The notes under the pieces are model-generated. The model was not told the DNA's origin, did no database searches, and saw only the letters and a list, made by a program, of their open reading frames with translations. A stretch of DNA of 64,000 nucleotides from Fimbriimonadaceae bacterium (GTDB lineage: Bacteria; Armatimonadota; Fimbriimonadia; Fimbriimonadales; Fimbriimonadaceae), in the NCBI GenBank assembly GCA_023957775.1, contig JAMLGR010000004.1:124001-188000 (forward strand), written 5' to 3'. Positions 15,566 to 46,142 of this stretch are shown in pieces (position 1 is the stretch's first letter; each line of letters starts with the position of its first letter). The translations under genes and the position numbers were made by a program.

Positions 15566-16831
15566 CTACTCCGCCAGGCGGAAGCCGGTGAACTGCCAGC
15601 GTTTCTCCGGTTGGAAGAAGTTGCGGTACGTGAGGCGGATGTGGTCGCGGGGCGTGGCGCAGGACCCGCCGCGCAGCACGCGCTGGCCGTTCATGAACTT
15701 GCCGTTGTACTCGCCGAGGGCCCCTGGCTCGGGGCGGTACCTGGGATAGGGCAGGTACGCGCTGCTCGTCCACTCCCACACATCGCCCAGAAGCTGCGCC
15801 ATCCCCGCCGCCGCAGTCGCCCGAGGGTGGAGGAGGCCGTCCTCCACGAAGTTCCCCTCGGTCGCCGAGGGGCCTGTGCGCCGAGCCGCGTGCTCCCACT
15901 CGAACTCCGTCGGGAGGCGCTTGCCCGCCCACGACGCGTAGGCGTCCGCTTCGAAGAAGCTGACGTGGCAGACCGGCTCGTTCGGGTCGAGGGGACGCAG
16001 GCCCGAGAGCGTCATGATCTTCCATCCCTCGTCGGTGGGAATCCAGTAGAGGGGATGCTCCCACCCCTCGCGCTGGACCGTGTCCCACCCGTCGGAGAGC
16101 CACCATCGAAACTCGCCGTACCCGCCGTCCTCCACAAAGCGGAGAAACTCGCCGTTGGTCACCAGGCGGTCCTGCAGTTGAAAATCCTCGAGGAGCGCCT
16201 GGTGCACCGGGCCTTCGTTGTCCCACGCGAACCCTCCGCTGCCATCGTCGCCGATCGGCACGATGCCTCCGTCGAACTCCGCAAATCCGGCAGGGCGTTC
16301 CTGGCTGGCCGAGGGAGCGGCGTTCTGGTACGCGGGGAGGAAGGGACTGCTCGCGAGGATGTATTTGATGTCGGTCGCGAGCAGCTCCTGGTGCTGCTGC
16401 TCATGCTGGAGACCGAGAAGCGAGAGGGTTTCGAAGGCACCCCACTCCGCCTCCCCGATTTCGGCGACGGCTCGGCCCATCGCCTCGTCGACAAATGCCC
16501 GGTAGCCGAACACTTCGGCGAGGGTTGGCCGGGAGAGCATGCCTCGACTCGAGCGTGCGATCCGCGTGCCGAAGGTGTTGTAGTAGGAGTTGAAGACAAA
16601 GGCGAAGCGCTCGTGGTAGGGCTCGAAACCGGGCAGAAACCGGGGGAGCACCAGCGTTTCGAAGAACCAGGAGGTGTGCCCGAGGTGCCACTTGGGCGGT
16701 GAGACGTCCTCGATGGGCTGGACCACGGTGTCCTCGACCTCGAGGGGGCGGACAAGCGCTTCGGTCTGGGCACGGACCCGTCGGTACCGCGTCAAGAGGG
16801 CGTCCCGGGAGGTGAGAGGCGGCGCGTTCAT
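15566..16831 (-). CDS. egtB: EgtB-like sulfoxide synthase (DinB plus FGE-type domains)
   Basis: 421-residue non-heme iron enzyme of the EgtB/SenA/OvoA group, which joins a thiol or selenium donor to the imidazole of hercynine using O2. The N-terminal DinB-like bundle carries the iron ligands: WHLGH near residue 50 and HEQQHQE at 143-149. A formylglycine-generating-enzyme-like C-lectin domain starts near residue 205 (GGIVPIGDDG) and includes DVWEWTSSAY near residue 360. No egtD methyltransferase gene lies in the window, so hercynine supply must be encoded elsewhere. Family is firm; whether the donor is cysteine, gamma-glutamylcysteine or selenosugar cannot be told from sequence by eye. Confidence 0.85.
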   Translation of the reverse strand: MNAPPLTSRDALLTRYRRVRAQTEALVRPLEVEDTVVQPIEDVSPPKWHLGHTSWFFETLVLPRFLPGFEPYHERFAFVFNSYYNTFGTRIARSSRGMLSRPTLAEVFGYRAFVDEAMGRAVAEIGEAEWGAFETLSLLGLQHEQQHQELLATDIKYILASSPFLPAYQNAAPSASQERPAGFAEFDGGIVPIGDDGSGGFAWDNEGPVHQALLEDFQLQDRLVTNGEFLRFVEDGGYGEFRWWLSDGWDTVQREGWEHPLYWIPTDEGWKIMTLSGLRPLDPNEPVCHVSFFEADAYASWAGKRLPTEFEWEHAARRTGPSATEGNFVEDGLLHPRATAAAGMAQLLGDVWEWTSSAYLPYPRYRPEPGALGEYNGKFMNGQRVLRGGSCATPRDHIRLTYRNFFQPEKRWQFTGFRLAE

Positions 16832-38932: not shown

Positions 38933-39622
38933 ATGGCACAGGAAGAAGCACTGTCGGAGCGGCTGGTCGTCTTGCGGGACGTGAAGGCGAACCCCAAGGT
39001 CAAGACGTTGATCGACGGCGCGAACAACGTGATGAAGGCCATGGGCTACACGGAGCACGGGCACCGGCACGTGGGCGTGGTGTCGAGCATCACCCGTTAC
39101 ATCCTCGAGGGACTCGGCACTCCGCAGCGCGAGACGGAGCTTGGCCAGATCGCGGCGTACCTGCACGACATCGGCAATGTGATCAACCGCAGCGACCACC
39201 CGATCTCCGGCGCGAACATCGCGTACTCGATCTTGACGGAGATGGGGATGGACGCCTCCGAGATCTCGCCGATCCTCGGCGCCATCGGCAACCACGAAGA
39301 GCTGCTCGGGGTGCCCGTGAGCACGATGTCCGCTGCATTGATCATCGCCGACAAAAGCGACGTGCACTTCAGCCGCGTGCAGAATCCGATCCAGGAGACG
39401 TTCGACATCCACGACCGCGTGAACTACGCCGTGCAGAAGAGCCGCGTCGAGATGGACGCGACGGCCCAGACGATCGAGCTGACGCTCCAGATCGATACGA
39501 CCCACGCATCGGTCATGGAGTACTTCGAGATCTTCCTGAGCCGCATGGTGATGTGCCGCCGCTCCGCCGACACGCTCGGCTACCGGTTCCTGTTGCGGGT
39601 GAACGGCGTGAATTTGGAGTAG
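38933..39622 (+). CDS. HD-domain metal-dependent phosphohydrolase
   Basis: 229 residues. HD-superfamily metal ligands are visible: GHRHVGVVSS (His), AAYLHDIGNVINRSDHP (His-Asp and a further His), IGNHEELLG and a late Asp in IADKSDVHFSR. The pattern matches small cytoplasmic HD phosphohydrolases acting on nucleotides or phosphonucleotides. The C-terminal third (about 140-229) is an alpha/beta extension without known motifs. ATG 38933 is used; ATG 38924 is an in-frame alternative three codons earlier. A heptamer repeat tract starts nine bases after the stop. Confidence 0.8.
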   Translation: MAQEEALSERLVVLRDVKANPKVKTLIDGANNVMKAMGYTEHGHRHVGVVSSITRYILEGLGTPQRETELGQIAAYLHDIGNVINRSDHPISGANIAYSILTEMGMDASEISPILGAIGNHEELLGVPVSTMSAALIIADKSDVHFSRVQNPIQETFDIHDRVNYAVQKSRVEMDATAQTIELTLQIDTTHASVMEYFEIFLSRMVMCRRSADTLGYRFLLRVNGVNLE

Positions 39623-39630
39623 GGGCGAGG

Positions 39631-39739
39631 CCTTGGGCCTTGGGCTCGGCTCGTCCTTCGTCCTTCGTCCTTGGGTCTTGGGCATTGGTCCCTTGGGCGT
39701 TGGGCCGGTCACCTGTCATCCCAGCCCCTTTATCATCCC
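39631..39739. repeat. Repeat module copy A, left part (heptamers plus catcccagcccc units)
   Basis: Heptamers CCTTGGG, CTCGGCT, CGTCCTT x3, GGGTCTT and GGGCATT, with one slipped unit, run to about 39713. They are followed by GTCATCCCAGCCCCTTTATC and a final ATCATCCC. The same series in the same order, read from the minus strand, makes up 45156-44983. In copy B the series continues straight into the 104-bp element; here it is interrupted by the IS110-family element. Confidence 0.85.
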
Positions 39740-39799
39740 AGCCCCAAGGGCTCGGCTGGCGCCGGCTGGGAAGGCGAAGAAACCGAGCTACCCTAGGCT

Positions 39800-39985
39800 C
39801 AGGAGTCCACAGAGTCAAGACCGTCTGCGCATTGGTGCCTTAATTGCCCGTTCCCGAGCTTGGTCCCGGCCTATTCGGTGGGAAGTTTGGAGAGGCGTTC
39901 GCCCCCCGAGGGGGCGAAACGCCATCCCGTTTAGGAGATTGGAGCATACCCCCGGCCGGCTTGGACTCCCCTTTCGATGGAGGTG
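39800..39985 (+). ncRNA. Candidate IS110 bridge RNA region
   Basis: In the IS110 group a structured RNA encoded 5' of the transposase pairs with target and donor DNA to guide recombination. This segment has no reading frame and contains a very strong hairpin, GGCGTTCGCCCCC / GGGGGCGAAACGCC, at about 39894-39922. It is followed by CATCCC (39923-39928) and TTAGGAG (39931-39937), which match the left flank (TCATCCC) and the right junction (TTAGGAG). These matches are short and may be chance. Exact ends are not determinable by eye. Confidence 0.4.
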
Positions 39986-39991
39986 TCTGAA

Positions 39992-41356
39992 ATGTCGAAT
40001 CGCAAATCACGCCGGCCGCTCAAAGTGGTCCATCCCAAAGCGGCGGGTATCGACCTTGGGTCGCAGGCCCATTTCGCCGCCGTCAGCCCCGAAAAGTGCG
40101 AGGAATCCGTTCGCTCGTTCGGTTGCTACACGTGCGATCTGGTCTCGATGGGCCAATGGCTTTTGTCCCACGGCGTCACGAGTGTGGCGATGGAGGCGAC
40201 GGGTGTGTACTGGGTTCCCGTTTACGAGGTTCTGGTCTCGATGGGTCTGAGCGTGCAGCTGGTGGACGCCCGGAAAGTGCACAACCTGCCGGGGCGCAAG
40301 TCCGACGTGCAGGACTGCCAGTGGCTGTGCGAGCTTCACAGCTACGGCCTTCTTTCGCGCTGTTTCGTTCCCGAAGCCCAGGTCCTGCCCTTGCGGGCGC
40401 ATCATCGGCAGCGGGAGCATCTTGTCGAGTTGCGTTCGAACCAGATCCTGATGATGCAAAAGGCGCTCGAGCTGATGAACCTGCAACTGCACAAGGTGCT
40501 GAGCGACATCACCGGAGTAACGGGCATGGAGATCATCCGCGCCATCCTCGCAGGCGAGCGCGACCCGCAGGTGCTCGCATCCAAACGACAGCCTGGCGTC
40601 AAGAAGAGCCAGGAGGAGATCGTCAAGGCTCTGGAAGGGACGTTCGCGGAGCACCACATGGTCGCCTTGCGCCAAGCAGTCGAACTGTACGACCACCTGG
40701 AAGGGATGCTTCGAGAGATCGATGGCTGCCTGAAAGAGGAACTCGAGCGGTGGTGTTCGCGCTACGGCCGAGAACCGGTCCAGCACCCATCGCAGCGCAA
40801 GCCCCGCAAGAACGAAGCCCGCTTCGACCTGAGCGGCACTCTTGAGGGCCTGACGGGGATGGATCTCACGAGAATCGACGGGTTGGACGCGCTCTCCTTG
40901 CTGAGCATCATCTCCGAATGCGGCACGGACTACAGCCCCTGGAAAACATCCAAGCACTGGACCAGCTGGCTCAAGCTCGCTCCCTGCAACCGCGTCAGCG
41001 GAGGCAAGCGTCTGCGTGGCTTTACGATGCCTGCGGCATGCCGCGTGTCCAAGACGTTCCGACTCGCGGCGCAGTCCTTGCACCACAGCGATTGCGCCTT
41101 GGGCTGCCAACTCAGACGGATCGCGGCCCGCCGAGGAATGCCCGCGGCCATCAAAGCGATCGCCCGGAAAATCGCGACCGCCTACTACAACGCCATGACC
41201 AAGGGCCAGGAATATGTCGACATCGGAGCAGCGGCATACGAAGAACAACAGAGGCGACAAAGACTCAAGGGCATGCAACGGCAGGCTCGAAAACTGGGCT
41301 ACCAACTCGTCCCGGTCCAGGACACTCCTGAATCTGCAGCGGCTACAGTTTCTTAG
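39992..41356 (+). CDS. IS110-family transposase (DEDD recombinase)
   Basis: 454 residues. The N-terminal RuvC-like DEDD domain shows AAGIDLGSQAHFAAV (first Asp), VAMEATGVYWVPVYE (Glu) and LVDARKVHNLPGRKSDVQDC (two Asp near residues 95 and 108). The C-terminal Tnp_2 domain includes LTRIDGLDALSLLSIISECG, WTSWLKLAPCNRVSGGKRL and the region with catalytic Ser candidates in PAACRVSKTFRLAAQ. The ATG at 39992 has GGAGGT seven bases upstream. The reading frame is intact, so the element may be active. Codon use looks like the surrounding genes. Confidence 0.93.
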   Translation: MSNRKSRRPLKVVHPKAAGIDLGSQAHFAAVSPEKCEESVRSFGCYTCDLVSMGQWLLSHGVTSVAMEATGVYWVPVYEVLVSMGLSVQLVDARKVHNLPGRKSDVQDCQWLCELHSYGLLSRCFVPEAQVLPLRAHHRQREHLVELRSNQILMMQKALELMNLQLHKVLSDITGVTGMEIIRAILAGERDPQVLASKRQPGVKKSQEEIVKALEGTFAEHHMVALRQAVELYDHLEGMLREIDGCLKEELERWCSRYGREPVQHPSQRKPRKNEARFDLSGTLEGLTGMDLTRIDGLDALSLLSIISECGTDYSPWKTSKHWTSWLKLAPCNRVSGGKRLRGFTMPAACRVSKTFRLAAQSLHHSDCALGCQLRRIAARRGMPAAIKAIARKIATAYYNAMTKGQEYVDIGAAAYEEQQRRQRLKGMQRQARKLGYQLVPVQDTPESAAATVS

Positions 41357-41451
41357 GAGCGAAGTCGAGGATCCGCTCGCAGGGGGCACGGGTGTCCGAG
41401 CGCGGGTGCGGGCCGGGTGGGGCCAGATCCCTCGACGTTGCTCAGGATGAC
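41357..41451. repeat. 104-bp TIR element, copy A (first 9 bp missing at the IS junction)
   Basis: 95 bases nearly identical to the reverse complement of 44879-44982. It begins GAGCGAAGTCGAG and ends GACGTTGCTCAGGATGAC. The outermost GTCATCCC of its left terminal inverted repeat is absent because the IS110-family element ends exactly there. There are a few substitutions or one-base gaps relative to copy B. Confidence 0.85.
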
Positions 41452-42142: not shown

Positions 42143-42557
42143 CAGAGTCGTGCTCGTCGGTCGCCTCACCCGCGATCCCGAGCTGAGAACAACCAACACC
42201 GGCAAGAACGTCGCGAACTTCTCGATCGCGGTCGACAAGCGGTTCAAGGGCGGAGACGGCGAGGATACGGCCGACTTCTTCCGCGTGAGCTGCTGGGAGA
42301 AAACCGCCGAGTTCGTCGCCAACTACCTGACCAAGGGTCGCCTCGTGGCCGTGGACGGTCGTCTGCAGTCGCGCAAGTACCAAGCGAGCGACGGCTCCAA
42401 CCGCGAAGTCGTGGAAGTGGTCGCCGAGAGCGTCCAAGGCCTCGATCGGCCGAGGGACGACGCCCACACTGGAGCCCCCGCCGCGACCGCGGCCGTGGCC
42501 GCCGGTTCCGGCGCCGCGCCCACCGAGGACGAGTACGACCCGTTCGCGGACGAGTAG
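42135..42557 (+). CDS. ssb: Single-stranded DNA-binding protein with an atypical C-terminal tip
   Basis: 140 residues: an OB-fold (INRVVLVGRLTRDPELRTTN, then FFRVSCWEKTAEFVANYLTK and GRLQSRKYQASDG), an Ala/Gly/Pro linker, and an acidic tip reading EDEYDPFADE. SSB tetramers coat single-stranded DNA and recruit repair proteins through a terminal DDDIPF-like peptide whose last Phe carboxylate is bound. Here three residues follow the PF, so recruitment may differ. The GTG at 42135 overlaps rpsF. It is a core gene with the expected rpsF neighbour. Confidence 0.96.
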   Translation: MINRVVLVGRLTRDPELRTTNTGKNVANFSIAVDKRFKGGDGEDTADFFRVSCWEKTAEFVANYLTKGRLVAVDGRLQSRKYQASDGSNREVVEVVAESVQGLDRPRDDAHTGAPAATAAVAAGSGAAPTEDEYDPFADE

Positions 42558-42570
42558 GCGTGTCCCGCGG

Positions 42571-42857
42571 GTGCTACGCCCGCTTGACGGGCTTCGGTGC
42601 AGGTGCCATGGGTGCCACGCCCGCTTGACGGGCTTCGGTGCAGGTGCCTCGAGTGCCACGCCCGCCTGACGGGCGTGCGAGCAGGTGCCGCGGGTGCCAC
42701 GCCCGCTTGACGGGCGTGCGAGCAGGTGCCGCGGGTGCCACGCCCGCTTGAAGGGCGTGCGAGCAGGTGCCATGGGTGCCACGCCCGCTTGACGGGCTTC
42801 GGTGCTGGTGCCGTGGGTGCCACGCCCGCTTGACGGGCGTGCGAGCAACTTCAGTTA
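42571..42857. repeat. Seven tandem 41-bp palindrome-bearing repeats
   Basis: Seven units at exactly 41-base spacing start at 42571, 42612, 42653, 42694, 42735, 42776 and 42817. Each has GTGCCACGCCCGCTTGACGG, then GCGTGCGAGCAGGTGCC or the variant GCTTCGGTGCAGGTGCC. The CGCCCG-CGGGCG pair forms a hairpin in each unit. No variable spacers exist, so it is not CRISPR. A related inverted unit (GCCACGCCCGTCGAGCGGGC) lies at 42901-42927. The array fills the gap after ssb. Confidence 0.92.
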
Positions 42858-42942
42858 CCGGGCTGCCCAGGTCTCGGATCGTGGGTGGGCTGGTTCCGAT
42901 GGCCACGCCCGTCGAGCGGGCGTGGCATCCCTCGCGCCCTGA

Positions 42943-44878: not shown

Positions 44879-44982
44879 GTCATCCCGAGCAACGTCGAGG
44901 GATCTGGCCCCAACCGGCCCGCACCCGCGCTCGGACACCCGTGCCCCCTGCGAGCGGATCCCTCGACTTCGCTCGGGATGAC
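44879..44982. repeat. 104-bp element with 26-bp terminal inverted repeats, copy B (complete)
   Basis: Starts GTCATCCCGAGCAACGTCGA and ends GGGATGAC. The outer 26 bases on each side are inverted copies with two or three mismatches. The interior (about 50 bases) is GC-rich and non-coding. It is a MITE-like or large REP-like element. Copy A at 41357 lies in the opposite orientation and is cut at one end by the IS110-family element. Confidence 0.85.
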
Positions 44983-45156
44983 CAAGGGGCTGGGATACCA
45001 AGGGGCTGGGATACCAAGCGGCTGGGATGATCAAGGGGTTGGGATGACCGGCCAAAGGCCAAAGGCCCAAGGCCCAACGCCCAAGGCCCAAGGCCCAAGG
45101 CCCAAGGACGAAGGACGAAGGACGAAGGACGAGCCGAGCCCAAGGCCCAAGGACGC
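44983..45156. repeat. Module copy B, remaining part: ggctgggatacc units and heptamers
   Basis: Four AAGGGGCTGGGATACC-type units (44983-45050) are followed by a long heptamer tract (45054-45156) built from GCCCAAG, GCCCAAC, GACGAAG and related units. The tract ends three bases before the stop codon of the S41 peptidase gene. Copy A has the same order in the opposite orientation. Confidence 0.85.
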
Positions 45157-45158
45157 CT

Positions 45159-46142
45159 CTACCCGCCCCGACTCAGCTTCTCCAGCGCCATGCGGTGGGC
45201 GGTGGCGAGGGCGTCGGACTCGGGCACGTCCACGTCGGGGATCACGCCGGTGCCCTCCCAGTTCGTCTTCGTGTAGGGGTTGATCGCGCGGCCCACAGGG
45301 ATGAAGGCGGAGAAATGGTCCGTTAGGCGAACGGTGCCGCCCGGGTTCGCGCCGCCCCAGGTGGGCTTGCCGATGATCGTGGCGCGTTTGAGGTTCTGGA
45401 GGTTGTAGGTGAACTCCTCGGCCCCGGAGCCCGTGCGCGGCCCGACGAGGACGTACACCGGCTTGTCCACGTAGCGCGGTCCGTCGAGCTTCTTCAGAGT
45501 CCAGAACTCGATCGTCCGGTCGCCTTCGCGGAAGTAGAGGCTGTTGAGGTGGACCGGCTTCTCCCCAAATAGGTAGCTGCACAGCAGCTGCACCCCTTCG
45601 GGGTCGCCTCCGCCGTTGCCTCGCATGTCGATGATCAAGGCGTCGGTGTCGGCAAGGAACTCCATGGCGGCCTTCGCCGGGCGAGCCGCGTCCTTGCCCG
45701 CCATGAACGAGCGCACCTCGAGGTAGCCCACGTTGCCCTCCAGACGCTTGACCGTCTCGAAACCCATGTTTTGCCGCCGGATCATCTCGTTGCGAGCCTT
45801 GATCTCTTCCGGGCCGGGCTCGGCGCGGTCGGCTCGCTCGGGCAGCTTGGCCGTACTGTAGCGAACGCGAAGGTGGGCGTCTTTGCACAGCGAGTGGAGG
45901 TCGTCGCTCAGTCGCTGGGCGAGGGCTTGGCCGTCCGTAATCGCGTCGTAGCTGCCCTCCTGTAGGTTCTTCCTCAGCAGTGCGGCGCCTTGGGTTGCCA
46001 ACTCCTTGAACACGTACCGCGACTCAAACGCGTCGGCGAGCGAACTCACCGCGCTCGTACGCTCGGTTGCATCGAGGCCCTGGGCGCCGGCGGCGACGCT
46101 GGCGGCGACGAGAAGGAGGAGAGAAAGCTTGCGTGCGTTCAT
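45159..46142 (-). CDS. Exported S41-family (tail-specific-type) peptidase
   Basis: 327 residues from the ATG at 46142; a GTG at 46154 is an in-frame alternative. A signal peptide (LSLLLLVAASVAAGAQG) is followed by a helical N-domain and the S41 core: VGYLEVRSFM, ALIIDMRGNGGGDPEGV, and VGPRTGSGAEEFTYNLQNL with the nucleophilic Ser. There is no PDZ domain, so it resembles the IRBP-like/tricorn-core S41 group more than CtpA. The end, GTGVIPDVDVPESDAL, is the typical S41 C-terminus. Likely a periplasmic serine peptidase with unknown target. Confidence 0.88.
   Translation of the reverse strand: MNARKLSLLLLVAASVAAGAQGLDATERTSAVSSLADAFESRYVFKELATQGAALLRKNLQEGSYDAITDGQALAQRLSDDLHSLCKDAHLRVRYSTAKLPERADRAEPGPEEIKARNEMIRRQNMGFETVKRLEGNVGYLEVRSFMAGKDAARPAKAAMEFLADTDALIIDMRGNGGGDPEGVQLLCSYLFGEKPVHLNSLYFREGDRTIEFWTLKKLDGPRYVDKPVYVLVGPRTGSGAEEFTYNLQNLKRATIIGKPTWGGANPGGTVRLTDHFSAFIPVGRAINPYTKTNWEGTGVIPDVDVPESDALATAHRMALEKLSRGG

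What the first reader, a model, noticed from the sequence alone, without database searches (positions are those of the whole stretch)
39740..41356. IS110-family element inserted into the terminal inverted repeat of a MITE-like element, with a candidate bridge RNA
Copy B of the module serves as an empty site. Left homology stops after ATCATCCC (39739) and right homology resumes at GAGCGAAG (41357), so the IS split GTCATCCC^GAGC, part of a 26-bp terminal inverted repeat. IS110 elements are known to target REP-like palindromes and to use an RNA guide encoded upstream of the transposase. The 5' region has a strong hairpin (39894-39922) followed by CATCCC and TTAGGAG, echoing the left flank and the right junction. 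The transposase stop codon lies exactly at the element's right edge.
Basis: partly seen in the sequence, partly recalled or inferred. Interest (0 to 1): 0.65.

Follow-up and report, generated by a model that had tools for sequence, protein, structure and literature searches.

The report
RNA-guided IS110 inside a mini-transposon repeat
A single mobile DNA element sits inside the end of a short repeated sequence, and the RNA it encodes upstream of its enzyme gene carries two short guides that match that repeat; the family is known, but this branch combines features so far reported separately for its two known groups.

Summary
The window holds one intact IS110-family element at about 39742-41359, inside the terminal inverted repeat (TIR) of a roughly 104-bp MITE-like repeat.

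A covariance model built from 20 relatives without the window finds a bridge RNA at 39787-39971 (85.6 bits, E 4e-18). Its fold is supported by compensatory changes. Guides were located by testing relatives with other targets. The left target guide is TTCCCGAG (39851-39858), 7/8 to the TIR. The right target guide is CTGCGC (39825-39830), 5/6 to the flank. The donor guide is TTTAGGAG (39930-39937), matching the right end.

A decayed left end lies at the same position of a second MITE copy in the genome.

Unexpected: in about 90 relatives (460-aa class) the RNA is upstream of the gene, as in IS110. The top-strand guide precedes the bottom-strand guide and a short subterminal inverted repeat is present, as reported for IS1111. 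The element is a new member of a known family; its branch looks like a mixed arrangement. One published figure that might already show this order could not be read.

The parts
39732..39741 (+). Left remnant of the MITE TIR (ATCATCCCAG; uninterrupted TIR is GTCATCCCGAG); core AG at 39740-39741
   Evidence: Alignment with copy B and other MITE copies; one base missing relative to the TIR
39742..41359 (+). IS110-family element (left edge uncertain 39740-39745; right core AG 41358-41359)
   Evidence: End structure shared with about 90 relatives, MITE copies as empty sites
39777..39783 (+). Left subterminal inverted repeat AAGAAAC, partner of GTTTCTT 41348-41354
   Evidence: 70 distinct relatives, 8-mer match 6.73 vs 4.47 shuffled; own partner better than swapped, 0/5000
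39787..39971 (+). Bridge RNA (seekRNA-type ncRNA)
   Evidence: Covariance model R1 built without the window: 85.6 bits, E 3.8e-18; covariation of 19 pairs
39819..39865 (+). Target-binding loop: helix 1 (39819-39823 / 39861-39865), helix 2 (39833-39838 / 39846-39850)
   Evidence: Compensatory changes in helices 1 and 2 across 20 relatives, aligned to the window
39825..39830 (+). Right target guide CTGCGC; pairs with the top strand GCGAAG (41359-41364) with one mismatch
   Evidence: RTG-RT complementarity diagonal, 0/2000 permutations
39851..39858 (+). Left target guide TTCCCGAG; TIR is ATCCCGAG (7/8). 39859-39860 CT: putative handshake bases
   Evidence: Guide-flank matching in 20 distinct guides, 162 vs 129 +- 3.7, 0/20000
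39888..39929 (+).
   Evidence: 9-pair helix with compensatory changes in 6 pairs; ATCCCG in 72/92 relatives
39930..39937 (+). Left donor guide TTTAGGAG, matching the right end TTAGGAG
   Evidence: 7-mer identical to own right end in 81/92 relatives over seven variants
39992..41356 (+). IS110 recombinase gene (likely start ATG 39992; mechanical ORF starts 39977); numbered from 39977: D26, E73, D110, D113, S341
   Evidence: PF01548, PF02371, NF033542, profile alignment and fold match to IS621
41348..41354 (+). Right subterminal inverted repeat GTTTCTT
41353..41359 (+). Left donor site TTAGGAG at the right end, containing the stop codon TAG and the core AG
41360..41451 (+). Remainder of the interrupted MITE, from CGAAGTCGAGG to the right TIR GCTCAGGATGAC
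   Evidence: Alignment with copy B and five other two-ended copies
44879..44982 (-). Uninterrupted MITE copy B (104 bp), the empty-site comparison

Best explanation
This is an intact IS110-family insertion sequence of the 460-aa recombinase class. It encodes a bridge RNA upstream of its recombinase. [quoted passage not shown] Together they read TTCCCGAG|CG(C)AG, i.e. the MITE TIR (GTC)ATCCCGAG|CGAAG. A second part of the RNA pairs with the element's own right end (TTAGGAG). The recombinase (DEDD RuvC domain plus catalytic serine) joins the circular element to the TIR at the shared AG core. Shown: the genes, the RNA and its conserved fold, the guide-target and guide-donor matches across relatives, the insertion in the TIR, and a second decayed left end at the same TIR position. 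Inferred: that the RNA is made and bound here, that the element is active, and the strand-exchange chemistry (from IS621).
For: Family; AlphaFold model (pLDDT 85) with IS621 and ISCro4 as best PDB matches. RNA: model without the window finds it at E 3.8e-18 and nowhere else in the genome; 97% of cells paired, covariation 0.405 vs 0.181 shuffled and at most 0.112 slid. Left guide: 0/20000 permutations over 20 distinct guides. Right guide: 0/2000. Donor guide: identical in 81/92, including rare variants TTGAGAG, TTGGGAG, TTAAGAG. TIR copies: about 20 sites in the genome, two-ended copies of about 104-114 bp. Second insertion: left-end remnant at C24:15993-16040 next to GTCACGCCGAA, with the opposite TIR at 16080-16101. 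Near-identical relatives L095/L096 sit at two sites with the same left flank GTCATTGCGAG, one of them followed by GAGCGAAG.
Against: The present left flank (ATCATCCCAG) matches the left guide only with a one-base gap. The guides alone do not single out TIRs in this GC-rich genome (207 sites at up to 2 mismatches, 170 for the reversed control). The right donor guide was not found. No expression data. Relatives are only 41-49% identical in protein.
Confidence: 0.88

Rival explanations
1. The element ends at 39787, with GAAACCGAG as left target, and 39740-39787 is a host repeat.
For: The best ungapped match of left guide plus handshake bases (7/10) is at 39780-39789; 39745-39791 has a second copy in the genome.
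Against: Distance from end to guide would be 63 nt; relatives have 103-161. It would cut off the subterminal inverted repeat and the left-end hairpin region present in relatives. The second copy behaves as a left-end fragment in another MITE.
Confidence: 0.05
2. Insertion into this repeat is incidental: the element is a drifting relic whose guides no longer matter, and the TIR match is chance.
For: Single copy, imperfect left junction, no copies in related genomes.
Against: 9 of 11 non-core guide positions fit the TIR at a fixed position (about 1e-4 by chance, my calculation), 10 of 11 for the TIR variant GTCATCCCGAGCGCAG; intact ORF and RNA; second remnant in the same target.
Confidence: 0.07
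3. Protein-only recognition of a palindromic repeat, with the upstream RNA having another role (for example mRNA leader).
For: No RNA data here.
Against: Guide-target covariation across relatives and the demonstrated mechanism in IS621, ISEc11, ISEc21 (PMC11208160, PMC11187229).
Confidence: 0.03

Closest known systems
IS621 / ISCro4 (IS110 group, bridge RNA; PDB 8wt6, 9t56)
   Same: Recombinase fold and catalytic residues, RNA upstream of the gene, target and donor guides, core dinucleotide shared by both junctions, REP-like extragenic target
   Different: 454-459 aa against about 326; target guides in the reverse order within the loop; core AG (the reverse complement of CT) instead of CT; a 6-9 bp subterminal inverted repeat instead of 2-3 bp
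IS1111 group (ISEc11, ISPa11, ISKpn4; seekRNA)
   Same: Top-strand guide precedes bottom-strand guide; subterminal inverted repeat
   Different: RNA is upstream, not downstream, of the gene; recombinase about 455 aa instead of about 340; inverted repeat shorter and at about 30-40 nt / 5 nt from the ends instead of 7 / 3 bp
ISEc21 (IS110 family, seekRNA)
   Same: Upstream RNA; several relatives, like ISEc21, target a conserved site of IS3-family elements
   Different: ISEc21 has the bottom-strand guide first; its IS3 target is the DDE region, whereas relatives here use the orfA/orfB CTAAAAAA frameshift region
REP-targeting IS110 elements (ISPpu9, ISPpu10, ISPa11, ISRm19; PMC1525189)
   Same: Insertion in a defined place of an extragenic palindromic repeat
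   Different: Here the repeat is a two-ended MITE-like element and the guide is identified

Membership tests
IS110 family (DEDD recombinase) | PF01548 RuvC-like DEDD domain with four acidic residues | tested here: met
   (E 9e-16); D26, E73, D110, D113 invariant, aligned to IS621
IS110 family (DEDD recombinase) | PF02371 domain with catalytic serine in a P----SG motif | tested here: met
   (21.2 bits, just below cut-off 21.3); NF033542 above cut-off; S341 aligned to IS621 S241
IS110 group | Guide RNA in the upstream (left) end, short right end | tested here: met
   250 nt left end, 3 nt after the stop
IS110 group | Bottom-strand (left) guide precedes top-strand (right) guide, as in IS621 and ISEc21 | tested here: not met
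   Reverse order: RTG 39825-39830, LTG 39851-39858
IS110 group | No long subterminal inverted repeat | tested here: inconclusive
   7-bp exact repeat here, about 6-9 bp in relatives; intermediate between the groups
IS1111 group | RNA region downstream of the gene | tested here: not met
   RNA is upstream; 3 nt downstream of the stop
IS1111 group | Top-strand guide precedes bottom-strand guide | tested here: met
   definition from PMC11187229
IS1111 group | Recombinase of 330-350 aa | tested here: not met
   454-459 aa
Bridge RNA system | RNA bound by the recombinase and required for recombination | not testable with these tools
   Needs biochemistry
Bridge RNA system | Guide-target and guide-donor covariation across orthologues | tested here: met
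   right donor guide not found

The most novel reading that the evidence does not exclude
The 460-aa class of IS110 elements is a third arrangement of the bridge-RNA family: RNA upstream of the gene as in IS110, but guide order and subterminal inverted repeats as in IS1111, with the core on the opposite strand (AG/AA for CT/TT). It would be a link between the two groups.
Probability: 0.45. Interest if true: 0.6.

Novelty: new variant of a known kind. Interest (0 to 1): 0.45.

Why it matters
The two groups of RNA-guided recombinases have been separated by where the RNA lies, the order of its guides and the subterminal repeats (PMC11187229, PMC11208160). A large class that mixes these features would show that guide order is not tied to RNA position, and gives a test of how the two groups diverged. 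It also offers a set of recombinases with readable guides and cores other than CT for genome engineering. For this genome it explains why the element sits in a MITE end.

Tried and rejected
(1) I first placed the left end at 39787 (note 1) on the strength of a guide match; rejected once the spacing and the conserved left-end landmarks were compared. (2) CATCCC as target guide: rejected, scaffold. (3) Rfam: no match. (4) Single-sequence scans of genome and viral collections found no relative; alignment-based scans gave 80 + 12 loci. (5) Searching the genome with the guide alone is uninformative. (6) Right donor guide: two covariation searches, nothing convincing. (7) My first look for terminal inverted repeats understated the signal because the left window was cut at 40 nt; repeated. 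(8) 3' side of the target loop as site of the right guide: no signal by eye; the 5' side gave it.

Full report
What is there. The window (C4:124001-188000 of a 3.5-Mb, 27-contig genome) contains one ORF of 459 codons, 39977-41356, with the IS110 domains PF01548 and PF02371 and above the cut-off of NCBIfam NF033542, the RNA-guided IS110 transposase. A Shine-Dalgarno-like GGAGGT just before ATG 39992 makes 454 aa the likelier product. A profile of relatives aligns to IS621 and ISCro4 in the PDB, with the four acidic residues and the serine in place. The predicted structure (pLDDT 85) has IS621 and ISCro4 as its best matches. The DNA is single-copy in its genome, and none of 100 related genomes has a close relative; the nearest proteins found are 41-49% identical, mostly in Proteobacteria and Cyanobacteria.

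Ends and target. The flanks are the two halves of a repeat found intact elsewhere: copy B in the window and five other two-ended copies of about 104-114 bp with 22-26-bp TIRs. About 20 TIR copies occur in this genome and the motif occurs in 11 of 100 relatives. In the interrupted copy the right part runs from CGAAGTCGAGG (41360) to 41451. On the left, ATCATCCCAG (39732-39741) stands where GTCATCCCGAG is expected. Relatives end in TTTCTTAGG + AA or AG on the right and mostly start with C after the same dinucleotide on the left, which gives 39742-41359 with core AG. The left edge could be 39745, because the C24 fragment starts at CAAGGG. So either one G was lost, or the last bases of the TIR were replaced by the neighbouring AGCCC unit.

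A second hit on the same target. C24:15993-16040 matches 39745-39791 (E 3e-8). It is preceded by GTCACGCCGAA (8/11 to the TIR) and followed, on the expected strand, by the opposite TIR at 16080-16101. I read it as a decayed left end inserted at the same position and orientation of another MITE.

The RNA. Twenty relatives, nearly all with core AG, were aligned without the window. RNAalifold gives three helices; 97% of cells are paired, 11 of 19 pairs have double changes, and the covariation score is 0.405 against 0.181 +- 0.017 shuffled and at most 0.112 when slid. The covariance model finds the window at 39787-39971, 85.6 bits, E 3.8e-18, full length, and nothing else in the genome.

The guides. 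Relatives insert at other sites, so guides can be recognised. The 8 nt after helix 2 match the left flank up to the core: over 20 distinct guides the summed best match (guide plus two handshake bases) is 162 against 129 +- 3.7 for permuted guides, 0/20000. Examples: TTTGCGAG for ATTGCGAG, TTTCCCAG for CTTCCCAG, TATATAAG for GATATAAG. The larger set (core AA) carries TTAAAAAA and often sits in IS3-family CTAAAAAA sites. The window has TTCCCGAG, 7/8 to the TIR. The 5' strand of the same loop is complementary to the right flank: one diagonal stands out, 0/2000 permutations in the AG set and overall, with neighbours at chance or much weaker. The window's CTGCGC pairs with GCGAAG with one mismatch and fits exactly the TIR variant GTCATCCCGAGCGCAG found in this genome. 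The donor guide after helix 3 equals the right end in 81 of 92 loci, across seven variants; note that loci were selected by a loose match to both motifs. I could not find the right donor guide.

Order of guides and repeats. In IS621 the 5' side of the loop pairs with the bottom strand (PMC11208160). In ISEc21 the bottom-strand match is also first, while in IS1111 seekRNAs the top-strand complement comes first (PMC11187229). Here the top-strand complement is first, although the RNA is upstream of the gene. In addition a subterminal inverted repeat AGAAAC/GTTTCT lies about 30-40 nt from the left end and about 5 nt from the right end; it pairs better with its own partner than with others' (8.61 vs 7.70 of 12, 0/5000), e.g. 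AAGCAAC/GTTGCTT in L082 and AGTAAC/GTTACT in L120. The same papers describe such repeats as typical of IS1111 and absent, short or imperfect in IS110, and say that further families may hide in the IS110 group. The cores AG and AA are the reverse complements of CT and TT, both accepted by IS621. A simple reading is that in this class the recombination site has the opposite polarity relative to RNA and gene; that is inference.

Limits. Permutation tests do not remove relatedness. Boundaries of relatives were partly set by guide matches, which is why the left-guide test lets every permuted guide choose its own best site. The papers' figures could not be read, so the guide order may already have been drawn for one of six examples. 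Nothing here shows activity.

Verdict. An ordinary family member with an unusually readable target, in a class with a mixed and possibly undescribed arrangement.

Noticed in passing
G000:C24:15982-16101 (L209): Second MITE copy interrupted by a 50-75 bp decayed left end of a related IS110, at the same TIR position as in the window.
   Followed up: partly
L016-L025, L089 and others, left and right flanks: Many alphaproteobacterial relatives of this IS110 class sit in the orfA/orfB CTAAAAAA frameshift region of IS3-family elements, and their RNA carries TTAAAAAA.
   Followed up: partly
L095 and L096, element borders: Near-identical IS110 copies sit at two sites that share the left flank GTCATTGCGAG, one followed by GAGCGAAGCGGCGAAGC, a likely extragenic repeat; cyanobacterial L081 and L085 share the right flank AGGCTACGCCAA, also a likely repeat.
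   Followed up: partly
L136, L137, L139, L140, L142 (CP019636.1): Five near-identical copies share the left target (ATGTGAG) but have different right flanks, so the right half of the target seems loosely specified.
   Followed up: no
window 42494-42888: Tandem array of seven 41-bp units after the ssb-like gene.
   Followed up: no
window 39620-39740, 45020-45160: Mosaic of short GC-rich extragenic repeats (CCTTGGGC, TCATCCCAGCCCCTT units), over 40 matches across the genome.
   Followed up: no
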